From NCBI GenBank assembly GCA_030765235.1, contig JAVCCW010000023.1, forward strand, positions 1 through 45,667: a stretch of 45,667 nt of DNA, read 5' to 3'. This document shows positions 1-45,667 of this stretch, piece after piece; the first letter of the stretch is position 1, and each line of letters begins with the position of its first letter. Under the pieces are notes generated by a model, which saw nothing but the letters and a program-made list of their open reading frames with translations, was not told the DNA's origin and did no database searches. The translations under genes and the position numbers were made by a program. Source of the DNA: Candidatus Gorgyraea atricola (lineage in GTDB: Bacteria > Omnitrophota > Gorgyraeia > Gorgyraeales > Gorgyraeaceae).

Positions 1-700
1 ATCCTCTTCCCTTATTTCCTTGGCATCTTCATCAAACTTAACACTATATGTAAATGGTGCATAAAGCTTATCATCTTCTGTTCTCTTTAATGTCCATTCA
101 AGGAAAAAGCTAAACTGATCCTCTATATTCCATCTTGTATTTTTGTCATATAGATTCCTCATGTTAAGCAGCATATTTAATGCCTGATTAGTAGTAGTCA
201 TCTTGTTATCTTTATCGAAAAATACTTTCATGGTTAGATCATTCTTTTTAGCATCATAGAGTCTTGTCCTCTCATTGGCAGCAGTTATGTCTTTCCAGTA
301 GAACTCCAGAAACCCCTCTTCTGCAAAAATCTCAAGAGTTTTTAAGACTTCCTTAGACCTGGCAAAGTAACCCTTCTCTATAAACTTACAATATTCCCTT
401 ATCCTTGTTTTGAAAGGTTTTTTCAAGTAATCTCCCAGTTCAATCTGAACTTCTTCTGGTAGTTTTTTTATATCTTTACTTGCTAGACTAAATCGTAATT
501 CATGCACACTGGCGTTTGTCTTTCCAGTCAAGTATTTCTTTGTAGAAGCGCTAAGGCCTTTTAGGATATCATCTGAAACAGCAATAGGGCCTTTATCTAA
601 TGTTTCCTTTATTATCCCTGTAGGTGCCTCTGGCTCCTGTGCCAGGCCTAACCAGTAAAAAATCTGGGCAGGTATGTTTTCATAAGCAAGGTTTTTTTCC
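1..700 (-). other. Helical tail at the window edge
   Basis: About 230 residues: amphipathic helices such as GIIKETLDKGPIAVSDDILK, ELGDYLKKPFKTRIREYCKF, LKTLEIFAEEGFLEFYWKDI and LNMLLNMRNLYDKNTRWNIE. The frame is still open at base 1, so the protein continues beyond the window. No motif is recognised. Confidence 0.5.
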
Positions 701-3700
701 TGTGAAGGATCTCCTTGATTATCCATCTGTATATGCGAAAATCTATCCTTGGCCCTCCATGTCTTTGTTCCAAAGGCCATATATTTCTCTATGTTAATAT
801 TATAATCAGGATCAATACTCATAAGATATGTGCCTGCTTTTTCGTCTTTAGGATCCTTGACTACCCAGTGATACTTATTAATCTCGCCTGTATCCTGTCT
901 AAAGGTAATTACAGGGCTATAGGGCCTGTCAAACAAGATAATTTCTTTATACTTACGCTTCTGTCCTGCCTGGACCTGCGTATCGTAATACACATCATTT
1001 ATCTCGCAAAATACAGGCAGTTCAGGATTGTCAGTATATATAGTTATCTTTTCAGTGTTATCTACCAAATCATTGGCAGTTACAGTTATGTATTTAGTTG
1101 TACCTATGACTATTGTCCTGCTCTGGTATGTCTCTATTACATTCTTAACTTCTATATCTCGGCCAGAGGCATCCTGCACTGTCATGGTAATTCCCTTTTT
1201 CCCTTTAGTATCAACAGCATACTTAGGCCTTGATTCTTCTCCTGTATTGTCAATAAACACCTTTTTATTATCCTTCACATAGGTTATTGACTGTACCTTG
1301 TTTGTCTTTTCCGACCTGCGCTCTATGAATAAGGGAACTCTATCTTTGTCTTCTATGGTTATATCTCTGTATTTATTTCCGCTATCATCAATGTCCCAGA
1401 ATCTACCTTTATCCTTATAGAGCTCCTTGTCAAGCACATGGAAAAATATACTGCCGTCTGGGGTAACCTGTAATTTAAGATAGTCTGGAGGAACACCTTT
1501 TTCGCCAAAACCCCATACATAAGATCCTGACTCCAAGCCTTCTTTAGGGATATAATGCCTGGTAAGTGCATCATTAATACGTTTGAACATATTTTTGACT
1601 ATCTCTGGATCTAGCTTTTTAAGCGCAGTACTATCGCTCCTGGACATATCCAGGCCAGGAATAGTAAAGCTGGAGATATTGTTTTGTGTCGAATCAATGC
1701 CTGACTTCTTAAAGACAAATTTATCATTCAGTATCTTTCCAATGCCAAAATGTCCGCCTTTTTCTCCAAGCAGCTTTTCACTACTGATCTTTGCAGGCAC
1801 ATCCTGCACTTCAAATAAATAACCTCCCCAGCAATATCCTGTATTTGAGCCTGGAAGATTTCTCACTATATTCTGCCACTGCTCATAATTTTTCTTCCTC
1901 TGCTCGTCTTCGCCTATTCCATAGCTGCTTTTTCCGTATTCACTAAAATATACTGGCTTACCTGTTTCTACTCCGAATTTATTGATTGAAAGCTGCTTAC
2001 TGTCTTCAAAGTCATTCACAGCATAACTATCTATATAATCCATTACCTCTAAGCAATTACCCTTTAGGTTCGGGTCTTTATCCAGTCTATATTCAAACGT
2101 CTTGATAAAACGAATCATACCTTCTGCACCTTGCCTGTACTCCTCTTGCGCAGCATCCTCATATACGGTTACAGCAGCTTCATAGTCATCCAAGAGGCCC
2201 TTGTCTTCAAGTTCCTTCTTCCATTCTTTAATCCCTATCTTAGCGATATTTTCCTTTTGTTTCTCTCTATTCAAGCCACTCTTTTCCAGCGGCTTTAAAA
2301 ACGTATCTCCTAATGCAGCAAAAAGCTTCTCAGCCTCGTCTTCTCTAAGCTTTTGATTTACTGCATCTTTTCCATTTACTTCAAATTGGCCTTCAAGGAA
2401 TTTCAAGGTGTTGGCAGCAATAACCTCTGTGGACAGATCGCTGGCATGAGGTGTCCAATTCCCAAGCACTATAGAGAAAATATGTTTTCCTGGTATAAGC
2501 GACTCTTTAAAGTTTTTTACCTGTTGTTCCGGCGTAAGCTCTGTATATTTGTATTTACTGCAATATTCCTCTGCAGCAGACTGTAGAAATGATTCATAGC
2601 CAGGGGATAGTTTACCTAAGAACGACTCTACATCCTCATAATTTAACGTGTATTTTGGATATTCATAGTCTTCATCCACGAGTTCGTGTTTCTTAAGGAG
2701 TCTGAAGAAATTCTCTGTTGCCTCTACTACTACCTCTTTCTCAGCTAGCTTACCTCTACCACACGTGAGATTCTGAAAACCAGATAGCTTAGGATGTCCC
2801 CAATCGTATTTTGCCTTTCTTCCCTCGACTCCATTGCCATTGCCATCTTCGTTTGCAAAAAGATTTGGTTCATTAGATACGAAGAAATCTGATACATATT
2901 CTTCGGGTGACCATGTCCTTACATATTTTGCATATTCATCCAGATTCTGGATTCTATCCTGGCGTGCATCTTTTTCGCCTTTATGCTCACCTGCAAAATG
3001 ACCCAGGGCTATCCACTGCCCGCCTCCATTATAGAAATTCCACCTCATTATGTCCTTTGTCCTTTTTACATCATATCTTGATGTACCAAACTCGTAGAAC
3101 CTAAAGGACTTGTTGTTAAACGGGTCAGCAGCTAATATCCTGCCCAGGTCAAAACCTCCTTGTTCCTCAGGTAATAATGATTTAATCCAGTAAGACATAT
3201 CCATGCTGTAATCTCCCTGTAATGTTCCATTAGCAGGTGTCTCATATACAGCTCCTGGTTGATGTTCCTTAAGAATATTTACTTCGCGATCTACTTTAAC
3301 GCCGTTTGCATACCCTACTTCATACCTAAAAGGCTTGCCATCTATATATCTTACCTCATACTGCCTAGGAGGGCCTGTGGGTACATCCCATGCATAAAGC
3401 GGTGGGAGTTCTGTTTGTTTTTTCTGGAGTTTAGAAAGAAAATCTGCAATAATAGGATGTTCTTTTATGTCCTTTAGTAAGCTGGATGCGACACTGGGTT
3501 CAGAATCATCTGGAGGCAAGCTATCATCTTGCTGTGTAGTCTCTTTTGTCTTTCCATAACTTACAGTAGGTAAAATAAGATTTATAATGTCATCTACAAA
3601 AGATGGCGCTGATGTATCAATAGGCTCATTATAAGATGTTCTTCTGTCAGGCTTGCCGCTGTCTGTTGAATCAGGCTTAGTCTTTGTTCTTGTCGTATCA

Positions 3701-36700: not shown

Positions 36701-39700
36701 TTCTCTATTAACTCCGGTACTTTTTCTAGTTTCTTTAGTTCCTTTAACTTTTCGAGTTTGTCTGCCTGCTCTCCCTCTGGTGTTGGTTTTGCCAGAGAAT
36801 ATACAATCGCAACTATTATAAGAGCAATGGCAAATTTCTCAAAAAAGTACCCAAAGTTATGGACTTCCTCTGTCTTGCCGTCTTTTTCTTTCTTGTGACT
36901 GCTAGCTCGGCTGCCTTCACTATCATAACCATAGGTCATTATTACTTTCTGGTTTTTGGTCATGCTAGCTACTGCGTAGGTAAATGTACTTCCTATTGCC
37001 CGGCCAGCCTGTTCAGCAAGAAAACCTATTATCATGGCAACCAAAGGTCCTAATCCTGCAGCAGTACAGATTATTATTGCCAAAGCGCTGAATATAATGC
37101 CCAGCGTGCCCTTGCCGCTCTTTATAACCTTGGTGTATGTATCAAGATCAGTAACGCTCTTTACTAAATGTCCGTTCTTATAGCTATTCTCAATAGTCGC
37201 GGTGGTGGTATATTTTACTGTGTTGCCGCCTTCTTCCTTGGTCTGGTATCTCTTTCCTTTTTCCCTGTAGGAGGCTATGTTTCCAAAGCCGTCATATTTT
37301 ATGTTCTTTCTTGTAAATATCTGCTGTTCTTTGCGGCCGGATGGGCTATAATTAGTCTGGTCAAAGGATGAGATTTGTCCAAGGGAATTGTAGCGGATAT
37401 TTGACTGGGTATATGGGTCTATCTTATCAAATCTATGTTTATTGCAATTCCAAAATCTAGAGCCAGTACTCTTAAACTCCTTGACCCTGCCTTTTAGGTC
37501 ATATTTAAATCCAGTCGATGTTTCTTCATGGTCATATAAAACTCTGTATTGATATTCTAATTTGGTCACGGGCACTAAGTTATCGTAATAATAGTCCTCA
37601 TCATGAATGGCTTCTATAAGGTTTGTCTCGAAGTCTGTCGTGCCTAGAAGATATGCATAATCCTCGTCGCTTACCACATCTGCATGTCCTAGTAACGTAT
37701 CTTTTTTATATGTCCACTTACTCCAGCATGTTCCTTTTGTATGCTTGGTCGCAATCTGACCGTAGTTATCATAAGTGAGATTAACCTCCCAGCTATATTC
37801 ACTGAGATTCTCATTAGACCCTGTTTCATAGTAATACGTGGATTTTCCATGATCGTGATAATTTCCATAGTAGTAATATGTTCTATGGAAATTAAAAGTA
37901 CCGCGGCTATCTTCTCCATGGAGACTCTCTACGTCAAGGCGATTCATGCCACCATAATAGGTAAGATTAACTACTGAATAGCTGGTAACTTCATAACCTT
38001 CCTCTACGAATGCCCCCCAATCAAGCAATCCTGTTTCATCACCTATTTCATCATATATTTTTATCTCATTACCTATGCCTTTTGTGTTTTCTGTGTTTTT
38101 AAGTTCAGTACCCAGGATCTCTTCTACCCTTAAGGTCTGGCGCACAACAGTCCCATCTATATTATTCACCTTTATCCTCAGCGTCTTCTCAGTAATATAT
38201 TTGTCTCCGCCGCTTAATAGTGCACCTGTTATATCAAAGGTAATGCTACGCGTCCTGGTCCCGACTTTCATATGAGAGTTCTCATCCCTTATGTAGGTAA
38301 TAAAATCGAAACTTTTCTCATCTGAATAGTGGCTGGTCCACTTACTCCTAAGCAGATTAGAAAGTCTATTAGGCTTGGAGAAGGCGGTCAAGTTAATCCC
38401 ATAACTCTCATGATTTATTGCGCCTTTCTGCCTTCCTGCTATGTCTTTAAAAATATCGCTGTATTGGGAACAATATTCATAGAATAAGGAGCTGCCGCGC
38501 ATTATTAAATTCTCCCACTCAAGATTCCCATCTGCATCTACATCTGGCTGATCTGTAAGATTAACACTTATAAGAATATCCCATTGTGCGCTTAATATGC
38601 TTGTCTCTGTAAGAGTAACAGTGCCAAATGAATAGCCATCTCTTCTTCTCAGAAAATATATCAAAGAATTCTTCTCTGGTATAATAGAATCTTGTGAGGC
38701 GACACCCCATTCATCTAAAGACTGCGTGGAATATCCCACAATTACACCCTGATTATTTCTATAACTCTCTATCCTTTGAAGGGTGTAAAACTCTGGGGAG
38801 GCAATGTTATAGTCCCTGATTTCCTCGCCCACCCTGATTCCTTGTTTGTAATAGCCTGCTGTTGTGCTCTTTCTTACAAGGATTCCATTGGTGAGGTCCT
38901 TAAGAACTGTATCGCCAATATTTTCGCCAAAATCAAATAATTCATACGTATCTATCTCCTGCGCAACCTGCCACCTGTATGTAGCGACATAGTGAGACTG
39001 ATTTGCTGTTTCCGACCACCTCCCAAATGCTGCCAACTGCTTAAACACGCTGAGTATCACCTTTCTTTCAACAGCAACCTCGAACGGGTCCTTTGTCAAA
39101 GATTCATTTACATCATCAGTGGCAAGATCATCGTCCTGGGTAACAAACTCATATGAGCAGATTTCTGTAACAAGATAACCGCCTTCATTTACCTTCTTTG
39201 ATGCCACCTGCTTGGTAACAGCAATGGGATCTTCATAATCAGCCGTACTTAAATCTCCATCGTATCCGGGGATATAATCTTTAAATATAGTCTCTGTCTC
39301 TACAGAACCATCTAAGGTGTTTTTCTTTCTCCTTACTTCTTTTATTCCTGATTTGAAATGCATCTGATTATCGGAATTATTAAAATCGTTTATAATATAA
39401 TTACCGGAAGAAAAGTCTGCCCTGTATATGCGGGCCACTACAACATCATATGTAGAGGTCTTGGATACAATTTCGCTATCTTCTATCGCGGTCCACGATA
39501 TTTCCTTCATGCTTTCTACATATTTTGGAGAATCAGGGGAACTGGAATCATAGATTGCATCATAAGTTATCACAACTGTACATAATTCTTTTATCGGATT
39601 TCCGTCCCCATCCACATCTCCGTCCTCATTCACAAAATCTCTGTAGAACTCTTGACGAGAAACATACTGTTTAGAATAGATTTCATTAGAAAGGTCGTGG

Positions 39701-42700
39701 CAGATGATATCAGAGGTATCTATAACTTCAACTACTCTTTTGACATTCTCTATAGTCTCTATTTTTTTCGAGTATTCTTTTATAGTAGATAATTGCCATA
39801 CAGTAGCCTTTAAATCATCTATTGCATATTCCCTGTTTTCAACGACCTTTTTAGCTCTATAAATGCCTTCACTTATTTCCTCTTTCTCACGGTATATAAG
39901 CTGTAGCGACTCTTTGAAATGCAGGCCATCAATATTTACCCAGCTCTCTACGTGGCTGACCGGCATTGTGCTGTCATCATATAGCTCCTCCTCGGCATAG
40001 TAACTATAGGTAAAGGTATCAAAGATATCTTGGTCACCAACACTTATAAGATGCTCTGAGACGCGGACGAGTCTGTCATCTGAAATGCTCTCATTGTTCT
40101 CATCGGTGGCACTGTCATTAAGTAAGGTTTCATATTGGAAATCAACTGATTCTCTTACGAGATTTGTGCCGCTCGGGTCTACGATATTTCTTATGTCTAC
40201 CCACACGACTGTCTCTTCCTCATTTATCTCGTTCTTTCTCTTATCCCTGAATGTATAACGGATATTGTCTGTGTAAAGAATCCCGCCTACATTAAACTTG
40301 GTATTTATGATCTCTACGTGGATCTTACCTTCTTTCTGAGACTCAAAATCTCCAGCTATCTCTCTCCACTCATGGTGGGTCTCCTGTACATATTCCATTA
40401 GTTGTGTGTTTACCTTATATAGGTTTATAGCTTCGTTGTCAGGCACTGAAGAATCTTCCTCCCAGTAGCCATCTTCATTAAAACTGCCTGATTCCCACGC
40501 TCCAATAGCAAAATAGATCTCTATGACATTCACGGTTGTATTAGGCTTTATGGTCCCATCTGTTTCGTCTATTACCTCACGCTCATCAGAATAGTCATAC
40601 CTGATATTGTCCAGTAACAGCTCATCGTCAAACACGTGGAAGGTCTGGGTTATGGTCTTGGTTAGAATCAATTCACGTACATCGTCCCACACGTCCTCTT
40701 TATGGATATGCTGTACAGCCTCAACAAAATAACCTCCACCTTGATAAATGACATCCCAATCAGTGGTGTAATATATGCGTGTCTCTACTACACTGTCAAA
40801 TACGCTGAGTCTATAGTTATACTGCACAGTATCGAGTAAGAATAAGTAATCTTCTGTAGGCGTATAGTTTTCTGAATGTGCGTGATCAGTATAATTATTT
40901 GACCCTTGCACTAAACCTAAAGGTATAGGTACATAGTTTTCCACAACTTGCACTTTGCGTGGATCTTCTGACCCAAAAACTTCTTTCTCGGACTCATATG
41001 CATACTGGACCTTGTCTAAATATCTTTGCTCTTCATCTATGAATCTCCAGTCATAATACTCAATTACCTTTACAGTCTTTAGTCCTTCAAGGGTCTGTCG
41101 TTCGGTAATATATTGCTCTATATTTGAACTCATGGACTGCAAGCCTGGCTCAGTACTTTCAGTATTGGTATAAAGGACATCGTTATCGCCTTTAGTATGA
41201 TAGCGTTCCTGGGTCTTATAAATAGTCTTATTGCCAGGGACATCATATGTGAGTGTAAAATTAGTAACAGTATATGCCTTATGCTTTTTAGGACCTGGCT
41301 TTGACTTATCTGATATACCCTCTGTAGCATATACCTCATACTCTTCATCATCTATTTCATGCAATTCCCTGGTACTCTTAAAAGAAATCTGCAATTCCGT
41401 TTTTATCGAGCCTTCGTATGTCTGCGTGTTGGTAACAACCCTGCCACCTATGCCAGGTATTGGATCCTGTTCAAAGGTCTTCCATGATTTAAATGTGGTG
41501 GTACCTATATACTGATTAGTCGCGTTTATACCTAAACCTGCTTCGTAATTTTTCAAGACATCTACGATAATGCCGTCTTGCTCTTCTTCTCTATAATTAA
41601 GCTGCAGGGCTGTAAGCACTGGCTTATCCATGCCATGTATGGACTCATAATAAGCTGATACGCGTTTAGCACTGCCATCCAATTCATCCACAACTGTATA
41701 GTCCTTTTGAAGATTTATTAAGAATACGCCTGGAGTATCGACCATGTCTATACCAGATAGATCCCCTTGCATGCCTTCAAAGGATTCAATAATAGTAACA
41801 TCTTTACTATCTGTCTCATTGTTTTCAGGATTAATAATTACTTCATCGTCATGGTCCAATGTGTATATGTATCTTACAGAAGATACTATGCCAAGGAACT
41901 TTGTCTCCTGAACCCTTATGTCACGAGTCATGCCATCAAGTTTAGTTTTGCGCTTATCAAGGTATTCCTCTATGGTACTATTAAGGAATGACTCGTTATT
42001 AATGATATCGAAATTCTTTATCGTAGTGATGATTTTCTGCCTATCGGAATCCCAGTCTTTGCTGGTGTTTTGTCTAGAAACAAGGTGTCCCTTACCGTCT
42101 ATAACATCGTAATTTTCTGTGACTTGCTCTAACTTGCCATCTCCTGATATCTGCGCGTAGGACTTTTGAGCTGTTGCAAAGTCAGAGTTAAAGGTGAAAC
42201 CAGCTCCTGATGGCATTACTATCTGGTCCTCACGGTGCGTGACTATGATACTATTTCCAGATGAGTGAAACCCCTTATAGGTAAACCAGCGACCTGTGTG
42301 GGTAATGCCATTACCTAGATATGTATCAGTAATAGTTAAAACTGTAGCATCAGCTAGGCCCTTCATATCCAAGTTCCTCAGGCCAACGCCGTTATAGATG
42401 TATTGGATTTGATATGGACGATCCTGGGTTATATTAGCCCCATTTGTAGCATTGTAGAACTTTACTACAGTGACGAGCTTGCTAGTCCAGTCTAGATCTG
42501 TATCGTGTATAGTCTTATAACTCCTGTATGCCTCGCCTACGACAAGTATGCGGCCCGAAGGCAGGTCTATGTATTCAAATTTCACTGAGAAACTAACAAT
42601 GCCATTCTCTGCAGGATCCCATTCTTTACAAGAGATAGTTGTGCTGTCCTCAAAACTAAAGTGTCTATAATCATTTGTTATATTAGCTACCTCTCCAGCA

Positions 42701-45667
42701 CCTACCCACTTAAACATCTTACCCTGTCCATCAGATACCTGCTTATAGATCTCTTGTCTGTTATCAACTATGGGCTGGCCCTGAAAAGTAGGGATATACT
42801 GGTCAGATCCAATGGCCTGATAATTAACAACTACAGTAATAGTGCTGGTCTTGGCTTCGCCAGATAAGCCTCCGGATGAATGCGTTTCTCTATCTTTCTT
42901 ATACATCTCCTGTTTCACATTCAGATATTGTGTACCAGCGATAAAATCAAAGTAATTATTTACACTGACAAGGCCCCTGTCTTCAGTGGTCTGCCATTCC
43001 TTGTGCGTCTCTGTTACACTGGTACACACGCCTAAATAATAGGTGTACTCAACCAGGATCTTTCTATTATTTGTAGAGTCAAATGCATTAAAGTACCAGT
43101 GGACTGTGGTAGGCAGAGAATAGTCTTCCATCTGTCCAGAAGAGTTTAGATAGGCATCATGGTTTTCTGTAATGGTAACGAGTCTGTTATTTATGTTGCC
43201 GGATTGGTGATTTAGATGTACGCCTTCAAGAGATTTGTAGGTCTTCTGTAGTGCACTTAGATAAGCCTGGCTATCAATATAATCATATGTGCGAGTAACA
43301 CTATAGGCAGCATCTGGTTTTGTAGGATCAGATTCCTTAAGTGTGGTCTGTATAGTAGATAGGTGCTCATCATAGTGATAATCATTAAGATCGCCGGATA
43401 CAGGATTATTGGGCAGCCAGTCTATAGTGTAAGTCACCTGAACCACTTTCCCTGCTTCCTTCATCTTAAAGATGCGCTGTATGGTGCTTGGATCCTCTAA
43501 TATGCGGTCTAGTTCATTCGCTACAATGCCTATCACATCATAGTTTTTAACCACAGTTATGGAGCTGGTATCAACATTTGTCCTGATGTCTTTTTGCGGG
43601 TCTATCTTATAGCTCTCTGAAAACGCGCTCAAATATCTAACATCTGCTATTAGATCATACACTGTATTCTCAGTGACCATGCCTAATGCAGCATCCCATC
43701 TCTTTTCAGTTTTTGTTACATTGCTAAAAATCTCTGTATAAGTGCCGTTAATAGGTACATTCTCGTAAGTATAGGTAAACTGCGTAAGTTTACCTGTCTC
43801 AGGTGCGCTAAAGTACCATTGAATAGTGGTAGGCGCTTCTGTAAATAGCTCCATGGTATTAGAAGAATTTATATAGGCGTCATAGTTTTCTACTACAGTG
43901 ACTAATCTTTCGCCGCCTTCAAGGGATTTCTTTTCCTTATAGCTTTCCTGCTGTGAGCTGAGGTATTTCTGGTCTCCTATCTTGTCATAAGTAGTGGTAG
44001 TTGTAATAAGGTTAGTTCCAGAGGCGCTCTTTCTGATCTCTTGTATGGTTGAAAGGTAAGAGGTGTCCAGATAGTCAAAGTTATAAACAGTCTGCACGAA
44101 TTCGCCGTCTATATCAGCGCCAAAATACCATGTAATGGTAGTAGGTTTATCCAGCAGTGCTAAGTCTGGACCTATAACATCATAACTTTCAACAACTGTC
44201 ACTGCCCTCATATCTGGTGAAGTCTTAGTGAAATCCACATCTCTCTTGTCCTTGTAACTATACTGTAAGTTTGAAAGATATTCGGTCCCGTCTATCACAT
44301 CATATGTCTTTATCTCTTGGGCCAGGACAGAAGTGTTATACACGTTTTCTATTATCTTCTTATGCATCTTTTGTGTCTGCGTATGGAAACCAAACTCCTC
44401 TGTAGTGGTTATGATCCTGTAAGGCATGAAAGTAAAAATTACTTTGAAAGAATTGGCCAGCCTCTTTATTTCATTATCATTAGTATGCCTAAGGAAAGAC
44501 GGTTTTAAAGAGCGCCAAAATATCTGAGCCTTCAGCTTAGTGATAGTAACTATAATTGCAGCTATTGCCGCAAGATCTGCTCCTTCCTGTGTGAGGAGTG
44601 CAGCAACATTGTTTTCGTCTAAGGATGATATGAATGCCCTTGCTGCAGCAGCCTTATCACTGGATGGGTCTTCTTTAGACAGTGTGTCCATAACATCCAT
44701 AAAGCCTATGATGAAACTCAGGTCTTTACTGATTTCCTCATGCTTTGTGTGGAGGCCGAACTCATAGGTGTCTACGATCTGAGTGAGGCTATTGTTTGTG
44801 TAGTTGGGCTTCTGAAAGGATTCCTGTGTAAAGGTCTCGATGCCATGCTCTTTGTTCACTACAGTAGTAACGATTCTATATTCACCATCTATAAAGCGAA
44901 CATCCTTTGTTATTTCCTGGGTGGAGGTGGGGATGCCATATTCAGAGATTTCAGTAGTGGTGGCAAGCGAAGAGTCAGGATCTGTGGATGCTATAACGTT
45001 TCTTAACTCGGTAATTGTAGGGACATCATTCTTTAGCACCATGGCCATGGTCTTCAGCATCATACCACTAGCCTGTTTTAACGAAGAGACGATTTCTGTT
45101 ATTGTAGAGGCGAGTTGTGGATCTACTCCTTCCTGCATCAAAAGCTCTTCTATCTGAGACACATCATCATCAGTAAGAGATAGTATAAAGGCCCTGGCAT
45201 CCTGTGCTTCCTGGCTTGAAGGATCAACTAATGCCAGTGTATCTATGGCATTAACTAAGTCTCCTGCTATCCTGGAGCCAAGAATAACATCCTTAGAGAT
45301 CTCTTCGTGTTTTGTGTGAAAGCCAAATTCATAGGTGTCTATAGCCTGGACTATGTTGGGCTTTGTGTCGTTCAGCTTTCGGTAGGATTCCTGTGTGAAT
45401 GTCTCGATGCCAAGTTCTTTGGTCTTTGCTATGGTGACGATTACAGGATCAGGCAATCCATCTATTGTCCTTTTTTCTTTGGTGATTTCCTGGGTAGAGG
45501 TCAGGATGTCGTATTCGGAGATTTCAGTAATAGTAGTGTCTGCGGAAAAATCACTTGATGTAAGCTCATCTCTAAATGCAGCAAGCTTTTCTATTATGGT
45601 TGAAAGACCTGTATTAAAGCCTATTAGTGCAGCAGGATCAGTCGTATTATCAATCCCTTTGAGGATG
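1..45667 (-). CDS. Giant multidomain protein, partial at both ends (at least 15,222 codons)
   Basis: One minus-strand frame (codons on + triplets starting at base 1) is open across the full window. It has neither start nor stop here, so both protein ends lie outside. The reading is coherent protein throughout, with recognisable motifs in the same frame from 44 kb to 2 kb: SecA-type Walker A and B, a C39-type Cys/His pair, HExxH sites and GH-A acids. The chain is rich in Lys, Glu, Asp and Gly and poor in Cys. It carries at least six hydrophobic clusters separated by soluble domains of hundreds to thousands of residues. The likely role is a cell-envelope or surface machine for adhesion, proteolysis and glycan hydrolysis, which is inference from domain content. 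Giant proteins of this scale are known from Omnitrophota. Residue n lies near (45666 minus coordinate)/3. Alternatives are a chain processed into many pieces, or a natural fusion of formerly separate genes. Confidence 0.96.
700..1800 (-). other. Beta-rich module after the hydrolase
   Basis: Strand-rich sequence follows the barrel: YLKLQVTPDGSIFFHVLDKE, KYRDITIEDKDRVPLFIERR, KGITMTVQDASGRDIEVKNV, SRTIVIGTTKYITVTANDLV, NTEKITIYTDNPELPVFCEI, YSPVITFRQDTGEINKYHWV. It looks like one or two beta-sandwich modules, which are often carbohydrate-binding when placed after a hydrolase. No family is assigned. Confidence 0.5.
1800..3240 (-). other. Candidate clan GH-A glycoside hydrolase domain
   Basis: Strands and acids fit a TIM-barrel hydrolase of clan GH-A. 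An early strand RFYEFGTSRYD is near 3090, then GGGQWIALGHF near 3015. After the helix NLDEYAKYVRTW comes the strand EYVSDFFVSNEPNLF, with the NEP motif (Glu at 2871-2869) that marks the acid/base residue. A later strand DYIDSYAVNDFED is near 2020, and KPVYFSEYGKSSYG carries the candidate nucleophile Glu (1941-1939), followed by a Trp-containing strand TGYCWGGYLFE. The 310 residues between the two acids exceed the usual 100-150, because helical insertions such as ENFFRLLKKHELVDEDYEYP are present. Clan GH-A covers cellulases, mannanases and beta-glucanases, and the substrate cannot be named. A cell-wall or polysaccharide-degrading role would fit a predator. Confidence 0.65.
3638..3781 (-). repeat. 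24-aa (72-bp) tandem repeat, two copies
   Basis: The + strand GTTCTTCTGTCAGGCTTGCC begins at 3638, and its copy GTTCTTCTACTAGGCTTGCC begins at 3710, a 72-bp period. The protein copies are RTKTKSDTTESGKPSRRT and RTKTKPDSTDSGKPDRRT. The repeat is Thr/Lys/Asp/Pro-rich and probably disordered, a spacer next to the TolA-like helix. Confidence 0.85.
3750..3870 (-). other. TolA-like Lys/Ala/Glu helix
   Basis: The protein reads KVKVDKVKEAKEAEKAAKKA and continues AAEEAAKKADRTK, a low-complexity charged single helix as in TolA and similar envelope-spanning rods. It connects the beta-rich region to the 24-residue tandem repeats and then to the candidate hydrolase. Confidence 0.8.
3880..6640 (-). other. 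Beta-rich region, unknown
   Basis: About 920 residues. Strand-rich segments dominate: KITVEPGFKKFVHIDEDGYL, RIYVNPKGQTVMKIEYNHD, YTVSYNIEFLEGTNIALKSM, VIKGEGTLDENITTTDEDKF, and later RKWYFRYIAMFYGSYEF and REFQVNFPNKIELDLFRP near 4200, which resemble a carbohydrate-binding beta sandwich in feel but not by any identifiable signature. A helical stretch with KRLVELFFDKLLTKPKRDLE lies near 4650. There are no membrane segments. It lies upstream, N-terminal, of the candidate glycoside hydrolase, where binding modules are commonly found. Confidence 0.45.
6640..6810 (-). other. Short coiled coil after the barrel-like region
   Basis: The segment SGTKQKVRDLDREIYNIRKE, then MEAKPVEKTARDEEREDRK, is a highly charged amphipathic helix. 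It directly follows the last putative barrel strand (ELNFIKLL) and leads into a small helical domain (KSVTGCQALVARAGALDGLT near 6560). It may pass through or plug the barrel, as helices do in trimeric autotransporters. That comparison is speculation. Confidence 0.5.
6830..7530 (-). other. Outer-membrane beta-barrel-like region
   Basis: About 230 residues consist of alternating hydrophobic/polar strands with turns rich in Gly, Asp and Asn and aromatic ends: AYVDIGGGARLKFLAE, YEFGVNFPSGFGYSNLI, DIGIGVTRFDRDHAKLGISS, RQTLGLKFQRIPI, ISPYITLPLTYS, ANAEVTASLNRITWKAGLEY, PVSVELGANVRFEETSFGAS, SVQRPWLKVDFGIG. About 10-12 strands are visible. This is the pattern of an outer-membrane porin or autotransporter-type barrel, though a soluble beta sandwich is possible. 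If real, it gives the chain an outer-membrane anchor. Confidence 0.5.
7560..10385 (-). other. Soluble mixed alpha/beta region, unknown
   Basis: About 940 residues without membrane segments. The N-terminal part has short strands (KYNAPYRYENKDMSIVGGEI, EFKIKGISKEKYEKI, RLLYFNESG). The middle has charged helices and strands (IRIFLIDKGVDAQGISTVEE, KAKLRYATILGEKEFTYYEY, GYSIELSTEALLEDKDQ). The C-terminal third is helical (DRIVDVGLAIDKYKMALQEG, EHKAEINEQRTRYLKFMEDF). An EFYFEYYYYQGT Tyr-rich patch lies near 8800. No catalytic signature is seen. Confidence 0.4.
10390..10445 (-). other. Polyproline linker
   Basis: The protein reads YDPSAGSPPPPPPDLEK, with six consecutive Pro codons (10425-10408) on a G/A-rich + strand. 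Polyproline runs make rigid extended spacers and can slow ribosomes unless EF-P is present. It marks the boundary between the coiled-coil/acidic region and the next soluble region. Confidence 0.9.
10640..11260 (-). other. Coiled-coil region
   Basis: Long amphipathic helices with heptad-like hydrophobic spacing: SAQIRGLEKEIADLPTTETL, KTKETIKTVEELNEQNEKLA, ALKSKVERKEVLSSEEEKEI, KLSELVSTEDNYLKQLKEHK. It ends in an acidic run (EETPDEEEIEEEREEGK near 10640). It immediately follows the membrane block, so it is likely a periplasmic or cytoplasmic stalk. Confidence 0.75.
11330..12220 (-). other. Second multi-pass membrane region
   Basis: Hydrophobic segments appear at 12190-12110 (SVMFIISGIGTGVMFGLLGG, with DVLTTLLPGSDAVSTFLSTI as a weaker one) and at 11560-11380 (LRGIANTLASSLKIF, NLAAILLAAGGIWFVEFEIA, VVLGGALGIKSFGAIHYLAG). 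Between them is a charged helical stretch of about 170 residues (EERWAKKHLLNSKEWND to KILEKKEDLRKW-type). The region separates the upstream membrane block from the coiled coil that follows. Confidence 0.75.
12850..13670 (-). other. Multi-pass membrane region
   Basis: At least five hydrophobic segments: VAAGIAVLFAGIGIVGLLSA and TMILVGSFSSAMFTALSVM (13650-13450), then VASWASVAVGLIPLLIYDIL (13130-13070), VKLSVLFGVLWPIATVALVA (13040-12970), and FGVVSSAGLFGLVVVKAIIG with LSFANAFMNFLASSG (12970-12870). A soluble loop of about 100 residues (13430-13180) separates the two groups. A basic stretch (VKFLRQKGRIYRN) follows, probably cytoplasmic. This is a genuine polytopic membrane domain inside the chain. 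Confidence 0.85.
13700..14000 (-). other. Second zincin-like domain (HEFRH)
   Basis: HExxH reads HEFRH at 13980-13966, within the helix KEFILKEIALHEFRHIGID. About 35 residues on, ALDEFICHNEGLM contains Glu residues and a His that could supply the third zinc ligand. Upstream (14250-14050) short strands and an Arg/Gly-rich loop (GRKDYSRGEAAPP) are present. The order fits a small gluzincin-type peptidase. It lies C-terminal to the lipoprotein-like signal and N-terminal to a membrane block, so it may work at the membrane surface. The family is not resolved by eye. Confidence 0.6.
14440..14502 (-). other. Internal lipoprotein-type signal sequence
   Basis: Within the giant frame a Met (14502-14500) is preceded by IRR and followed by FGLLLIPLVSLMIFFSSC, a 17-residue hydrophobic core ending in a Cys (14448-14446). 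The residues after it (TIDKKDISKAAGKKD) are polar, as in mature bacterial lipoproteins. The lipobox is imperfect: FSSC, with Phe where Leu/Val/Ile is usual. The ATG is preceded by AAGGAG one base away, closer than a normal ribosome binding site. It could be an internal start producing a lipoprotein form, a fusion scar, or simply a signal-anchor helix. Confidence 0.6.
14530..14760. repeat. GC-rich patch containing a dispersed-repeat fragment
   Basis: This stretch is clearly richer in G and C than its AT-rich neighbours. Near 14540-14560 the minus strand reads TTGTCATTGCGAGCC, sharing TGTCATTGCGAG with the palindromic repeat at 33862-33944. GC-rich runs lie at 14570-14605 and 14700-14760. The frame is kept, giving APAKAAGALIPRLSLRAKAD, which looks like non-protein-like, low-constraint sequence. 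It is plausibly a former intergenic region with repeat remnants, now translated. Confidence 0.6.
14880..15370 (-). other. C39-like cysteine peptidase domain
   Basis: The segment AIGAVSAVNCGVHSLSVVLE puts a Cys (15309-15307) in the N-C-G-x-x-[AS]-L context typical of papain-fold C39 peptidases at the start of a helix. A strand FILLVPDHFMPIVGAYSD follows with the probable catalytic His (15030-15028), 93 residues later, and a NYFVTRTLDGKDVAISKQE stretch gives the closing strands. C39 domains cleave double-Gly leader peptides of bacteriocins in ABC exporters, or act as stand-alone inner-membrane peptidases. Here the domain sits between two SecA-like motors on its N-terminal side and a lipoprotein-like signal on its C-terminal side. 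It could process this chain or a secreted partner, which is inference. Confidence 0.75.
15380..16600 (-). other. Mixed region preceding the C39-like peptidase
   Basis: It starts with a short beta sheet (RISVGNVSFSLKYDKKTNTF, VGGETIETS, GQFIVVGLPIEDG), then a charged disordered stretch with RKSSSAERARARASHKA near 15930, then helices (ELPVSRAEREIDIIEGRED, KLPLKTLLFFTLLKQTLELE). The helical part could be a propeptide-like or docking region for the adjoining peptidase. No known domain is recognised by eye. Confidence 0.4.
16620..16985 (-). other. Gly/Ala/Pro/Gln-rich linker
   Basis: A low-complexity segment with DSKAAGLAPAGVGAELEKD, GAGQQDISGRIQQPVETPEG, IIGAGGVLEDAGAGMDIG. It is rich in Gly, Ala, Pro, Ser and Asp and has no stable hydrophobic core. 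It separates the helical region from a small mixed alpha/beta stretch (ISVGNVSFSLKYDKK near 16460) that leads toward the C39-like peptidase. Confidence 0.65.
16990..18350 (-). other. Helical region, unknown
   Basis: About 450 residues of amphipathic helices with many Met, Lys and Glu residues, for example EKEGLKKFRARISKTI-like stretches, MEKACSVYDFLTNVAYINTA, AEMTGIDPAVGIAINESFKK, and AAKARRIAKKLLEAPKEAKP near 17110. A run of short helices repeating M-x-x-x-x-x-M (LPEKLMQMKEKDPEQFEKIT) lies near 17640. There is no catalytic motif or membrane segment. I do not recognise a family. Confidence 0.45.
18370..18640 (-). other. Membrane cluster after the hexapeptide helix
   Basis: Three to four adjacent hydrophobic stretches: GKTLFSLGLSIAAFLWAPAL, LPVAVLIGMIMQG, LMLTGILAIAIAVPALELV, and a weaker LSAPSLIVRILSQLP. 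A Lys-rich turn (LNLKKMTLKKG) separates the first pair from the third, which suggests that this turn faces the cytoplasm. The cluster is flanked by soluble helical domains on both sides. Confidence 0.8.
18755..19170 (-). other. Left-handed beta-helix (hexapeptide repeats)
   Basis: Hexapeptide repeats of the [LIV]-G-x-G-x-x type run in series: KLGKGVIVGEGAIVIGCIIG, DGVVIAAGALVTGSTILSG, KIGEGSKVENV, NIGKNAYVSNV, IAGDNAHIENV, IRAGKNSFIQDI. This is the signature of left-handed parallel beta-helices found in acyltransferases, gamma-carbonic anhydrases and sugar nucleotidyltransferases. About 20 hexads give 6-7 coils. No catalytic His of carbonic anhydrase or acyltransferase type is evident, so it may be structural, for example a trimerisation module. 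It follows the motor-2 coiled coil and precedes a membrane cluster. Confidence 0.85.
19250..20230 (-). other. Coiled-coil/helical scaffold after motor 2
   Basis: About 330 residues are almost entirely charged helix: KKERFLELEKEQNLTTKEQK, VKKAVAQKKKAVSELRESLE, MGKFTKEIKKKYKDLKENRD, KSEEDKIAEEKKAERELADK. The position after motif VI corresponds to the helical scaffold and wing of SecA, but it is longer and more coiled-coil-like. No zinc-binding SecA C-terminal Cys motif (CxCxSGxxxxxC/H) is seen. It may connect the motor mechanically to the beta-helix and membrane cluster that follow. Confidence 0.65.
20230..22330 (-). other. SecA-like preprotein-translocase ATPase domain (motor 2)
   Basis: This is the best-preserved enzyme in the window. 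QYDEQITTGHLMGLGNLVQF leads into Walker A GTGEGKT (22086-22066), as in SecA, where a DxQxxGG helix precedes TGEGKT. The following strand SIVTGTAYEFAWRDAM parallels the SecA segment VNDYLAxRD. Walker B IDEVD (21762-21748) lies 108 residues after Walker A, about the SecA spacing. A strand pair YLVEYNTVNRQVKITKEGEG near 21540 resembles the start of the SecA preprotein cross-linking domain. Motif V is SRGTD (20733-20719), and motif VI is QIVGRCGRNG (20376-20347) with both Args kept. All ATPase residues visible to me are present. It probably drives polypeptide movement, perhaps of parts of this same giant chain. Fusion of SecA to such a protein is highly unusual. Confidence 0.9.
22330..23690 (-). 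other. Helical region preceding motor 2
   Basis: About 450 residues of amphipathic helices: KITEGMFKSTNVSEVASHMK, then ADMILKLSGETTDSAKLNIA, then a Ser/Gln/Asp-rich stretch near 22880-22800 (QSRSDAFDQTQTQDTADSVD-like) and KSEKEIGQFIDEKAGAIRRQ. There are no membrane segments and no catalytic signature. It leads directly into the N-terminal helices of the second SecA-like domain and is probably an accessory or substrate-handling part of it. That role is inference. Confidence 0.45.
23690..23960 (-). other. Ser/Thr/Pro/Ala-rich low-complexity linker
   Basis: The protein here reads as a disordered linker, for example STPVSTPMRIAGESTSKATP, AKRAPSETKTAPKK and TPASETKETGEIKP. It separates the helical spacer after motor 1 from the helical region that leads into motor 2. 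Such linkers are common between folded domains and are often protease-sensitive. A processing site is possible but no motif is visible. Confidence 0.7.
23980..25080 (-). other. Helical linker region with one hydrophobic patch
   Basis: About 360 residues follow motor 1 on the C-terminal side. Near 24850-24780 a weakly hydrophobic stretch (GVSIPGAIGALAVITDTMM) might be a membrane-associated helix. Around 24560-24490 a Leu/Asn/Ser-rich run occurs (GLNSLNSLNLND) within repeated short helices of the type SALEIAISEDNLPEL and DLSALIENLGGL. A Cys-containing patch (SNCGVDVDVV) is near 24070. No catalytic motif or known family is recognised. It probably acts as a spacer between the two SecA-like motors. 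Confidence 0.5.
25080..27100 (-). other. Divergent SecA-like DEAD-type motor domain (motor 1)
   Basis: Helicase/SecA motifs appear in order. Walker A is GTGEGKT (26940-26920), preceded by a QLKAIDGILKA helix. A SecA-type strand WLATNTFEEAKKLF follows. Walker B is GDEFD (26553-26539). Motif V is GRGTNLEG (25344-25321) and motif VI is QGTGRIGG (25179-25158). Walker A to motif VI spans about 590 residues, within the SecA range. SecA is the cytoplasmic ATPase that drives preproteins through SecYEG. Here two catalytic positions differ: the Asp of GRGTD is Asn, and the last Arg of QxxGRxGR, the arginine-finger position, is Gly. Reduced or lost ATPase activity is likely. About 200 charged helical residues between Walker B and motif V take the place of the usual cross-linking and scaffold parts. 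It could be a regulatory or structural pseudo-motor paired with motor 2. Confidence 0.8.
27700..28180 (-). other. Membrane cluster between the stalk and the first SecA-like domain
   Basis: Two to three hydrophobic stretches are visible: SYAAASAVTGFLIFTTMYGV (about 28120-28060) continuing to QFMTNMLFELTDYAAS, then NSILYTMGSAILANF (about 27930) and GIGELAALGLLGKGG (about 27840). After them the chain becomes strongly basic (KAGRMTFRALRKGGKGLRGA and more Lys/Arg until 27580). By the positive-inside rule, this puts the C-terminal side, and so the following SecA-like motor, in the cytoplasm. The topology is inference. Confidence 0.6.
28500..33640 (-). other. Long beta-solenoid-like stalk region
   Basis: About 1,700 residues consist of short Gly/Asp/Asn-turned strands repeating every 20-40 residues, for example GQFILEDG, GSITFNATRIFGFDL, GIIDLKVENGNIKIEE, GEFAITDKGEFVILY, GKLQLKTGVVAKLTTKG, GVFALSSGVITLRTKKGGY and GVIEVKNEKMLFFAKG. 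The pattern G-x-[IVF]-x-[LVI]-x-x-G-x-[VIF]-x-[LVI] and the scarcity of Cys and Pro fit a beta-helix or beta-solenoid, as in large surface adhesins. Some segments recall FecR-type or filamentous-haemagglutinin-type strands, but no named family is certain. Acidic/Lys-rich linkers (KEEAADPKKEETKE near 31630, KDKEETKTKEIQPEVPK near 30750) split it into at least three blocks. It lies between the TPR-like motif and a membrane cluster, as expected for a rod projecting from a membrane anchor. Confidence 0.65.
33700..33850 (-). other. TPR-like helix pair
   Basis: The segment ETFKKAQAAREVGDFKEAAE followed by LFNQSLKIL matches the tetratricopeptide pattern (A-x-x-x-G-[DN]-[FY]-x-x-A-x-x-x-[FY]-x-x-[AS]-L). 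A single clear unit is visible, and the neighbouring helices are too diverged to count. TPR units mediate protein-protein contacts. It sits directly downstream (C-terminal) of the palindromic repeat insertion and just before the beta-solenoid region, so it may act as a cap or docking element. Confidence 0.55.
33862..33944. repeat. Dispersed GC-rich palindromic repeat inserted in frame
   Basis: About 80 bp stand out as GC-rich. On the minus strand they begin with TCATTGCGAGGATGG, continue through CCCTCCTTCGCCAAGGCTTC and GGAGGG, and end in a GCGACGAAGCAATCCCAC-type tail. This is the typical form of dispersed repeats seen in many uncultured bacterial genomes (TGTCATTGCGAGG...CGAAGCAATC). The core CCCTCC (33894-33899) pairs with GGAGGG (33914-33919). 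The insert is a whole number of codons in effect: it is read through as LSLRGWSPPSPRLRR and onward, without a stop, joining a helical region to a TPR-like motif. Confidence 0.75.
34180..34640 (-). other. Zincin-like metallopeptidase domain (HEYGH)
   Basis: An HExxH zinc-binding motif, HEYGH, is encoded at 34341-34327 and continues as HEFHQ. It sits in a helix preceded by a strand (GMILFKLVE) and followed by an alpha-helical stretch containing SQELVGHYKEM about 30 residues later, whose Glu could be the third zinc ligand. An amphipathic helix (VVVEELEKELEGL) lies upstream near 34620. The order strand, HExxH helix, downstream Glu fits gluzincin-type peptidases. Activity is not proven, and the family cannot be named from sequence by eye. 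A second HExxH site lies near 13970 in the same polypeptide. Confidence 0.6.
34650..36780 (-). other. Helical charged region with weak hydrophobic patches, no recognised domain
   Basis: This stretch of about 700 residues is mainly predicted helix, rich in Lys, Glu, Leu and Asp. Near 36150-36000 there are two moderately hydrophobic segments (VAMALTIAAYDAARQTAAEV and TAALTLILLSPADPILLSM), possibly peripheral membrane helices. The rest alternates acidic loops (DKDALEGLDRESEVEVEIVK) and amphipathic helices. It lies between the YD/membrane block and the HEYGH peptidase-like site, so it may be the prodomain or spacer for that site. I do not recognise a family. Confidence 0.5.
36780..37110 (-). other. 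Transmembrane segments inside and after the YD region
   Basis: Hydrophobic stretches GTLGIIFSALAIIICTAAG and GPLVAMIIGFLAEQAG (about 37110-36985) form a probable hairpin. After the last YD motif a third stretch (EKFAIALIIVAIVYSLAKP, about 36840-36785) follows. Each is long enough to span a membrane. A long Lys/Leu/Glu-rich amphipathic helical region follows toward 36400 (KLEKLKELKKLEKVPELIEK). The segments may anchor the YD portion in a membrane or mark the hydrophobic core often found inside Rhs cocoons. The sequence alone does not decide. Confidence 0.7.
36900..38080 (-). other. YD/Rhs-like repeat region
   Basis: Canonical YD-repeat signatures (Y-[DN]-x-x-G-x-[ILV]) occur in series: YDNYGQIATKHTKG near 37780, YDLKGRVKEF from 37503, YNSLGQISSFDQT from 37392, YDGFGNIASY from 37296 and YGYDSEGSR near 36945. 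The two central units are 96 nt (32 aa) apart. YD repeats in Rhs, teneurin and Tc-toxin proteins form a hollow beta-cocoon around a toxin or act as surface adhesins. A Tyr-rich patch (TYYYYG, STYYYETG) lies near 37860. No Rhs core aspartyl protease motif was recognised. Unusually, a membrane hairpin (see next entry) lies between the fourth and last YD motif. Confidence 0.8.
38100..42470 (-). other. Degenerate continuation of the beta-rich repeat region
   Basis: The protein continues as Tyr/Thr/Val/Glu/Asp-rich beta segments without clean boundaries. Remnants of the upstream repeat recur: VTENYDVIDG near 42125, LLDTVQYNYRL near 40845, LLLDNIRYDYSDER near 40605, ILYTDNIRYTFRDKRK near 40285 and a FDTFTYSYYAEEE strand near 40015. 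The shared pattern is a [VI]-x-Y-x-Y strand followed by an acidic/basic turn and a V-x-V-V-E-x-Y strand. There are no hydrophobic membrane segments, catalytic motifs or Cys clusters that I can identify. It is probably an extension of the same fibrous or shell-like region, with units too diverged for reliable delimitation by eye. Confidence 0.6.
42470..44320 (-). repeat. Beta-rich ~100-125 aa repeats with T-V-V-x-N-Y-D core
   Basis: Five or more diverged units line up in the protein. Each opens with a T-[VI]-[TV]-V-x-[NS]-[YH]-D-x-[IY] strand: TVVESYDVIG near 44190, TVVENYDAYIN near 43895, TVVKNYDVIG near 43560, TITENHDAYLN near 43183 and TVVVNYQAIG near 42840. Spacing is about 300-375 nt. Within a unit a PTTIxWYF strand is followed by a Y-D-x-I-x-x-x-x-Y-L-S-x-x-Q-x-x-Y-K motif. 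Alternating hydrophobic and polar residues with Thr, Val and Tyr indicate beta structure. I do not recognise a named family. The [NS]-Y-D motifs recall a remote relative of YD repeats, which do appear downstream at 38-37 kb. An adhesive or shell-forming role is inference. Confidence 0.75.
44340..45528 (-). repeat. Protein tandem repeat, about 190-aa unit, two copies plus partials
   Basis: Two long units follow each other in the giant protein. One begins with TEISEYDILTSTQEITKE at 45528, the next with TEISEYGIPTSTQEITKD at 44955, a period of 573 nt (191 aa). Inside each, a second marker recurs: EFGFHTKHEEISKD near 45327 and EFGLHTKHEEISKD near 44758. It is followed by a helical stretch with DPSSxxA..ARAFI and a short LMQEG/LTQEG motif. 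A third partial copy of the marker (EEFGFHTQTQKMHKK) sits near 44400. The first 130 or so bases at the window edge hold the helical tail of a preceding unit, so the array probably extends outside. The function is unknown. Tandem domains at this end suggest an extended adhesive or spacer region. Confidence 0.85.

What the first reader, a model, noticed from the sequence alone, without database searches (positions are those of the whole stretch)
1..45667. A single reading frame of at least 15,222 codons fills the window
The minus-strand frame is free of stops across 45.7 kb at about 40% GC, which cannot occur by chance, and it starts and ends outside. Motifs from different families sit in the same frame from end to end, ruling out a patchwork of separate genes. 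Giant proteins on this scale are known mainly from Omnitrophota and few other lineages.
Basis: partly seen in the sequence, partly recalled or inferred. Interest (0 to 1): 0.9.

Follow-up and report, generated by a model that had tools for sequence, protein, structure and literature searches.

The report
Giant Omnitrophota envelope protein gene
The whole window is the middle of one real, enormous bacterial gene, at least 21,861 codons long once the neighbouring contig is added, from the same class as a known cell-eating bacterium whose giant protein it partly resembles; the chain carries two units that look like protein-pumping motors.

Summary
Confirmed: the minus strand (45,666 to 1) is one open frame of 15,222 codons; the other five frames hold 454-1,636 stops. 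A codon model favours that frame in 151 of 151 windows. The window is a whole contig (C23) of a 1.74-Mb genome. Its last 119 nt are the first 119 nt of contig C20, in frame, and the ORF stops at C20:20,037, giving at least 21,861 codons. Collinear homology with relatives' single-contig ORFs supports the join. The start lies beyond the window.

The organism is an Omnitrophota of the class of Velamenicoccus archaeovorus; the two giants share a SecA-like module. The window protein has two SecA-like ATPase units, a C39-protease-like domain, few other recognisable domains and 0.24% cysteine; the C20 part is membrane-rich.

Two giant N-termini in the same genome (C7, C26) have a signal-like start, C39 domains and a c-di-GMP-I riboswitch upstream. 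Family evidence makes that type the likely start; the junction is not shown.

It is a new member of a known kind with under-described features: SecA-like motors, cysteine depletion, probable c-di-GMP switch. Exported contact or attack machinery is the best mechanism, but inferred.

The parts
1..45666 (-). Central part of one giant open reading frame (chain residues 1-15,222 in this report; residue 1 is the first codon in the window, not the true start)
   Evidence: continues in C20
1..119 (-). 119-nt exact, in-frame overlap with the start of contig C20, where the ORF runs 6,639 further codons to its stop (C20:20,037-20,039)
37087..45666 (-). Residues 1-2,860: T/S/D/Y-rich repeat region of YD (Rhs-like) style, by eye
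   Evidence: Sequence; homologous to G016:C35, a 21,570-codon ORF of the same family (residues 1,240-2,353 to 4,262-5,275, E 5.8e-42). No Pfam family at E<=0.01
36790..37083 (-). Two hydrophobic segments (2,862-2,880 and 2,941-2,959), possible membrane hairpin
   Evidence: Hydropathy scan
33877..34749 (-). Zinc-peptidase-like HEYGH motif at residue 3,776 (motif reading recalled)
   Evidence: no peptidase family, two chance-level Pfam matches
24787..27219 (-). SecA-like unit 1 (residues 6,150-6,960; GTGEGKT at 6,243)
   Evidence: BLASTP to V. archaeovorus giant 4,423-4,917, 23% identity, E 2e-8; profile of the window and G042 also finds V. archaeovorus, G140 and G309. No Pfam family alone
20167..22749 (-). 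SecA-like unit 2 (residues 7,640-8,500; GTGEGKT at 7,861, RGTDIK, GRCGRNG)
   Evidence: Pfam SecA_DEAD E 3.2e-22; PDB SecA E 1.8e-21; embedded homologue in 14,821-codon ORF of G241, E 1.6e-36
18871..19140 (-). Left-handed beta-helix (hexapeptide) segment, residues 8,843-8,932
   Evidence: Pfam LbH_EIF2B E 2e-4, below curated cut-off; a UDP-GlcN N-acyltransferase in the PDB, E 0.004
18418..18585 (-). Two hydrophobic segments (9,028-9,083)
14737..15429 (-). C39-peptidase-like domain (residues 10,080-10,310; NCGVHS)
   Evidence: Pfam Peptidase_C39_2 E 0.0078, below cut-off; overlaps homology to G002:C8 ORF (9,978-10,313, 34.5%, E 2e-39)
14446..14511 (-). Hydrophobic segment ending in a lipobox-like SSC (10,386-10,407)
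   Evidence: motif reading recalled
13627..14289 (-). HEFRH zinc-peptidase-like motif at residue 10,563 (motif reading recalled)
   Evidence: Motif only; no Pfam family
11485..13596 (-). Six hydrophobic segments between residues 10,691 and 11,394
   Evidence: 11,083-11,251 and 11,384-11,488 are collinear with G241 6,453-6,627 and 6,642-6,745
1567..3429 (-). Glycoside-hydrolase-like region (residues 14,080-14,700); FSEYG at 14,575 aligns with FTEYG or similar of ORFs that I read as GH2-like
   Evidence: Local match of about 54 residues in 5 of 367 other genomes, best E 9.7e-5; alignment; no glycoside-hydrolase Pfam hit

Best explanation
The window is about 70% of the known length of one giant gene (at least 21,861 codons; window plus C20) of an Omnitrophota in the class of V. 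archaeovorus. SHOWN: one coding frame, in-frame continuation and stop in C20, two SecA-like ATPase units with intact nucleotide motifs, a C-terminal part rich in hydrophobic segments, very low cysteine. INFERRED: the missing N-terminus is of the type seen on contigs C7 and C26 of the same genome, with a hydrophobic export signal (..AFLxYDxAWAxDFSP), YD-style repeats and C39 protease domains, its mRNA headed by a c-di-GMP-I riboswitch. On that reading the gene is switched by c-di-GMP. The chain is exported N-terminus first. The repeat region forms a surface fibre. The membrane-rich C-terminus, with a possible glycan-synthase-like module, anchors it in the envelope. Embedded proteases and a glycoside-hydrolase-like region act on neighbouring cells or on the cell's own coat. 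The SecA-like units use ATP to move polypeptide, perhaps the giant itself, across a membrane.
For: Frame and coding. Join: exact in-frame 119-nt overlap; a search of the genome with window 1-2,000 matched only C23 and C20 (masked C9 not comparable). G241's single-contig ORF matches the joined chain in order at 7,798-8,465, 11,083-11,251, 11,384-11,488 and, in the C20 part, 16,941-17,155. In the same family G002:C8 carries 9,267-9,503, 9,978-10,313 and, from the C20 part, 18,619-18,864 (43.7%, E 9e-47) in one ORF; G001 and G006 likewise pair window and C20 modules in the same order. A window module recurs in C20 (E 4.6e-5). SecA-like units. Hydrophobic segments: 42 in the joined chain, 28 of them in the C20 part (simple hydropathy). 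Cysteine 0.24% (window), 0.37% (chain) against 1.27% in 15 ordinary ORFs. Start type: in G042, G071 and G140 one ORF holds both a signal/C39 start and unit 1; starts of a related kind lie at C7 and C26, with a riboswitch at both and in 10 of 13 same-family loci; the tail of G002's start contig matches the head of its window-like ORF (67% over 67 aa). Glycan-synthase hint: G241 segment, Glyco_trans_2_3 E 3.9e-5, 24 bits, cut-off 27. A giant of V. archaeovorus was seen as peptides, 3-fold up in attached cells (PMC10066038, passage read).
Against: The junction between C7 or C26 and the window is not shown: no shared 17-mer, and the repeat comparison is inconclusive (best window match E 0.21, hhalign probability 0.6%; reverse profile C26 E 3.5e-4 with no single strong repeat, C7 E 1.7). 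C7 and C26 have no BLAST match at E<=1e-6 to the window-like ORFs of G002, G016, G006 and G001, and C7 pieces none by phmmer at E<=0.01. C7 and C26 cannot both be its start, and C13 and C22 are open-frame contigs of unknown place. V. archaeovorus, UBA6210, G140 and G309 giants show no riboswitch upstream at gathering score, nor does complete same-family G015, so a switch is not a rule. RF01051 passes the cut-off in 328 of 384 class genomes, with 7 matches in this one, so it is not specific to giants. ATP-driven motors sit oddly in a chain predicted to be exported. Unit 1 was found in 0 of 18 same-family genomes. The hydrolase and protease calls are mostly motif-level. Both AlphaFold models failed (pLDDT 33.4 and 36.5). 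No expression, localisation or topology data.
Confidence: 0.55

Rival explanations
1. Polyprotein: the giant is translated as one chain but is cut by its own C39-like and zinc-peptidase-like domains into separate envelope enzymes and motor proteins, so the SecA-like units work as freed proteins.
For: Protease-like domains lie inside the chain (C39-like E 0.0078; HEYGH, HEFRH). C7 carries three C39 stretches. Enzyme-like domains sit in other open-frame contigs of the genome, C13 and C22. Proline- or charge-rich linkers at 11,708, 13,960 and 18,935.
Against: No cleavage motif was identified (none was searched for systematically). The whole chain, motors included, is cysteine-poor (0.30% over 6,150-8,500, against a median of 0.72% in 28 SecA-type ORFs of 634-1,066 codons), which suggests one shared environment, though three of those 28 fall at 0.25-0.32%.
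Confidence: 0.25
2. Surface-coat synthesis: the protein mainly builds or remodels the cell's own polysaccharide coat (membrane glycan-synthase-like module plus glycoside-hydrolase-like region), without attacking other cells.
For: The G241 segment homologous to 16,941-17,155 resembles a GT2 or glucan-synthase region. The next ORF of at least 250 codons after the giant is a GH2-type hydrolase (C20:20,505-22,835, E 2.9e-12). The V. archaeovorus giant was itself proposed to form a coat (PMC10066038, passage).
Against: The GT match is below the Pfam cut-off, and our own segment has no Pfam hit. The hydrolase-like match is about 54 residues.
Confidence: 0.2
3. Assembly artefact or a decayed, untranslated frame.
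For: The ORF fills the contig exactly and contigs break at both ends; the genome is held as 30 contigs.
Against: 151 of 151 windows favour the frame. Relatives' contigs of 64,712, 52,332 and 44,463 bases are each one open frame, and the single-contig V. archaeovorus genome has one of 39,687 codons, although 40 kb of it is masked in our copy.
Confidence: 0.03

Closest known systems
Giant ORF product of Ca. Velamenicoccus archaeovorus LiM (39,678 aa in PMC10066038; NZ_CP019384.1, here G071, 39,687 codons stop to stop)
   Same: Same class; one ORF; SecA-like unit 1 homologous (23%, E 2e-8); many membrane segments (42 predicted helices there; 42 hydrophobic segments here); cysteine-poor (0.26% there, unmasked part; 0.37% here).
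   Different: Only the SecA-like unit aligned in BLAST or phmmer, with 40 kb of the V. archaeovorus ORF masked. No riboswitch upstream of its gene at gathering score. Its start motif is FLPEQVAWA; C7 and C26 have FLxYDxAWA.
Giant ORFs (>20 kb) of Omnitrophota in general (Seymour et al. 2023, PMC10066038, passages read; PMC12057145, passages read, cites up to 85,800 aa from a preprint not seen here)
   Same: Length, few annotated domains, transmembrane segments, poor conservation.
   Different: SecA-like motors and riboswitch control are not mentioned in the passages read; the string SecA occurs 0 times in the main text of PMC10066038.
SecA preprotein translocase motor
   Same: Nucleotide motifs and DEAD/P-loop domains in unit 2.
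   Different: Embedded in a giant chain; far below the NCBIfam equivalog cut-offs (113.4 against 814 bits). The genome has one other match, not listed in detail, which I take to be its housekeeping SecA.
Same-family giants G002, G016, G006, G001, G015
   Same: Shared modules in the same order (G002, G006, G001), shared repeats and one module (G016), one C20 module (G015). G002, G016, G006 and G001 also have separate start contigs of the C7/C26 type with a riboswitch.
   Different: Modules differ much between them; the complete G015 giant has 8,190 codons, no riboswitch found, and ends in an AroE-like stretch (my reading of the sequence).

Membership tests
Omnitrophota giant proteins | Single ORF above 20 kb | tested here: met
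   45.7 kb in the window, 65.6 kb joined
Omnitrophota giant proteins | Encoded by an Omnitrophota genome | tested here: met
Omnitrophota giant proteins | Many transmembrane segments, few annotated domains | tested here: met
   42 hydrophobic segments by simple hydropathy; two Pfam families at or above cut-off
Omnitrophota giant proteins | Translated as one product | not testable with these tools
   No proteome held for this genome
SecA family | DEAD-type nucleotide domain | tested here: met
   Unit 2: SecA_DEAD 79.6 bits, cut-off 24.6
SecA family | Full SecA domain set, equivalog score | tested here: not met
   PP_bind 17.1 bits, cut-off 23.5; no SecA_SW; equivalog cut-offs not reached. So SecA-like, not a SecA.
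Rhs/YD-repeat proteins | Pfam Rhs/YD repeat match in the N-terminal region | tested here: not met
   No family at E<=0.01 in residues 1-5,000
C39 peptidases | Profile match with catalytic Cys and His | tested here: inconclusive
   Window domain E 0.0078, below cut-off; C7 domains E 2.8e-29, above cut-off
Clan-A glycoside hydrolases | Whole catalytic barrel with acid/base and nucleophile | tested here: inconclusive
   Nucleophile-side stretch only; fold model failed
c-di-GMP-I riboswitch control | RF01051 aptamer above gathering score upstream of this gene | tested here: inconclusive
   Present upstream of C7 and C26 giant starts; link of those starts to the window ORF not shown

The most novel reading that the evidence does not exclude
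A giant, cysteine-depleted envelope protein carries its own SecA-like motors in the same chain and uses them to drive itself, or effector segments cut from it, across a membrane (its own or a neighbour's), with the gene switched by a c-di-GMP riboswitch when the cell attaches.
Probability: 0.12. Interest if true: 0.9.

Novelty: new member of a known kind. Interest (0 to 1): 0.55.

Why it matters
Giant Omnitrophota proteins are known but described as having few domains and obscure roles. Three features here make their role testable: SecA-like ATPase units embedded in giants of several families (this genome, V. archaeovorus, UBA6210, G140, G309, G241, and cut off at a contig end in G001); strong cysteine depletion (none in 14,821 residues of G241); and a c-di-GMP-I riboswitch in front of giant-gene starts in this family. 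Together they point to exported, attachment-regulated machinery with its own motors.

Tried and rejected
Structure prediction failed for the hydrolase-like region (single sequence, pLDDT 33.4) and for SecA-like unit 1 (three sequences, pLDDT 36.5), so no fold search was run. PDB by sequence: only SecA and weak hexapeptide matches, plus one chance-level hit, for residues 4,801-9,800; none at E<=1 for residues 1-5,000 and 10,223-15,222 (residues 9,801-10,222 not searched); only two chance-level hits for the first 5,000 aa of C20. PHROGs: none for residues 9,601-14,600 and the first 5,000 aa of C20, so no sign of a phage origin there; the rest was not scanned. Rfam in the window: none. Viral contigs: three scans, no relative confirmed. 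C7/C26 repeats against window repeats: inconclusive. A SecA-like reading of a GGGKT motif in G002:C8 did not hold with our profiles. A guess, from reading the sequence, of a glucan-synthase-like module in C20 was not supported directly; only the homologous G241 segment gave weak matches.

Literature: V. archaeovorus paper PMC9004380 not held; the West-Roberts preprint is known only from PMC12057145 passages. Search SecA + Omnitroph + giant: one paper, PMC7203096, of which I later saw passages on other words. Search c-di-GMP + riboswitch + Omnitroph: none. PMC8542988, PMC11573180 and PMC13153191: passages only.

Full report
Observation. The window's minus strand is one open frame of 15,222 codons; the other frames hold 454 to 1,636 stops. 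A codon model trained on six ordinary genes of this genome prefers this frame in 151 of 151 windows with stops scored neutral, so the frame looks coding along its length.

Context. The window is the whole of contig C23 in a genome of 1,744,161 bases, 30 contigs, 97.6% complete. The last 119 nt of the minus strand equal the first 119 nt of contig C20. The frame continues there for 6,639 new codons to a stop at C20:20,037-20,039, so the joined ORF is at least 21,861 codons. The other end matches no other contig (masked C9 not comparable). Other contigs of the bin also overlap exactly at their ends, by 82-127 nt, so such overlaps look like assembly-graph joints.

Independent support for the join. 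G241's contig C10 (44,463 bases, one open frame) matches the joined chain in order at four places, the last in the C20 part. In the same family, G002:C8 (11,893 codons), G006:C76 (14,110) and G001:C159 (5,010) each carry both window and C20 modules in one frame. G016:C35 (21,570 codons, open at both ends) matches the window's repeat region (E 5.8e-42) and residues 9,282-9,442 (E 1.7e-7). A window module recurs in C20 (E 4.6e-5).

Identity. A profile of SecA-like unit 1, built from the window and G042, matched 5 of 384 class genomes: those two, G071, G140 and G309. The named collection returned two records: NZ_CP019384.1 (Ca. Velamenicoccus archaeovorus LiM) and DISM01000001.1 (UBA6210). Their lengths equal the contigs of G071 and G042.

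Anatomy. At E<=0.01 Pfam sees little but SecA_DEAD (E 3.2e-22) and P-loop_SecA at its cut-off; a SecA_PP_bind and two hexapeptide matches are below cut-off. Two SecA-like units lie at 6,150-6,960 and 7,640-8,500, both with GTGEGKT and later motifs that I recognise from memory as SecA-like. Unit 2's best other-genome match is embedded in G241's giant; the other matches listed are ORFs of about 570-1,340 codons. That list is cut short, and at most two candidates a genome were scored. Unit 1 also hits V. archaeovorus, UBA6210, G140 and, split over two contigs, G309; unit 2 also hits a piece at a contig end of G001 (E 3.8e-6); no shuffled sequence matched. Further: a C39-like domain, two zinc-peptidase-like motifs, a short glycoside-hydrolase-like match, and 42 hydrophobic segments, 28 in the C20 part. 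Cysteine is 0.24% in the window part and 0.66% in the C20 part, against 1.27% in 15 ordinary ORFs. Eleven giant ORFs or pieces, one from each of eleven relatives, have 0.00-0.42%.

The missing start. A profile of four relatives' N-termini, each with a hydrophobic signal and C39-like domain, found giant starts on C7 (3,273 codons, leaving the contig) and C26 (775 codons, leaving the contig), and one weak match on C29 (E 0.018). C7 and C26 starts each lie downstream of a tRNA-Glu and directly downstream of a c-di-GMP-I aptamer (58.5 and 59.8 bits, cut-off 35). Of 14 other-genome family loci fetched I tested 13 (L153 starts mid-gene); 10 of 13 have an aptamer of RF01051 or RF03167 above gathering score just upstream, one more is below threshold (33.2 bits), two have none. 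RF01051 is common in the class (328 of 384 genomes over cut-off, 7 matches here), so presence alone is not special; position is the point.

The link of those starts to the window is indirect. G002's start contig C38 carries this start and aptamer, and its tail repeats match the head of C8, the contig that carries window and C20 modules (67% over 67 aa; five shared 17-mer positions, the only pair among those compared). Complete G015 has the start motif and a C20 module in one ORF, but no aptamer. In G042, G071 and G140 a signal/C39 start and unit 1 share one ORF. Against this, no direct link was found for our own contigs, C7 and C26 have no BLAST match at E<=1e-6 to the window-like ORFs of G002, G016, G006 or G001, and C7 has no phmmer match to them at E<=0.01.

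Mechanism. Low cysteine, the export-signal type of start, the C-terminal part rich in hydrophobic segments, protease-like and hydrolase-like parts, and the published report that a V. archaeovorus giant rises 3-fold in attached cells (PMC10066038, passage) fit exported contact machinery. The SecA-like motors do not fit easily: they need ATP. Either they face the cytoplasm, act in cis during export, or act in another cell; this is unresolved. A polyprotein is the strongest rival.

Novelty. Giant ORFs are known: >20 kb in 77 of 116 Velamenicoccia genomes (PMC10066038, passage) and up to 85,800 aa (PMC12057145, passage). One search lists larger open frames than ours, some of which may run through masked stretches. 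In the searches made I found no print mention of SecA-like units in these giants or of riboswitch control; the key preprint was not available.

Noticed in passing
Own genome C25:63,099-73,763 (+) joined to C16 (L080:3-12,026 +), 122-nt exact in-frame overlap: A second giant (7,523 codons): signal-like start, HEAT repeats, six AAA_5 stretches and a C-terminal VWA with a DESGSMGS motif. Best PDB match is eukaryotic Midasin (E 1.8e-148, 7 stretches), next CobS (E 1e-12): a bacterial Midasin-architecture protein. The join lies in a repeat region.
   Followed up: partly
L073:9,842-9,767 (-) and L085:660-735 (+): c-di-GMP-I riboswitches directly upstream of two paralogous giant-gene starts, each behind a tRNA-Glu; an aptamer is present in 10 of 13 same-family loci tested.
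   Followed up: yes
G241:C10 (L129-L131), 14,821-codon open contig: No cysteine at all in 14,821 residues, although it holds a SecA-like unit with SecA_DEAD, P-loop, PP_bind and SecA_SW all above cut-off.
   Followed up: partly
Own contigs C13 (L077) and C22 (L083): Both are open from end to end and carry enzyme-like domains (C13: HEAT, NDK, and UDPGP below cut-off; C22: cNMP-binding, RamC_N, TIM barrel), probably pieces of further giants.
   Followed up: partly
G358:C2, G035:C9, G382:C62, G153:C68: Open frames of 57,756, 45,037, 39,957 and 35,884 codons carrying the C39-type module (masked stretches not excluded). Of G035:C9 (135,114 bases) the 120 kb fetched are one open frame.
   Followed up: partly
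C20:20,505-22,835 (L005:505-2,835): The next ORF of at least 250 codons after the giant's stop is a GH2-type glycoside hydrolase (Pfam E 2.9e-12), followed further on by an RND efflux set.
   Followed up: no
G015 giant, C-terminal 300 residues (L203): The 8,190-codon giant appears to end in a shikimate-dehydrogenase-like stretch (read from sequence; Pfam gives only F420_oxidored, E 7.5e-4, below cut-off), suggesting capture of a housekeeping enzyme.
   Followed up: no
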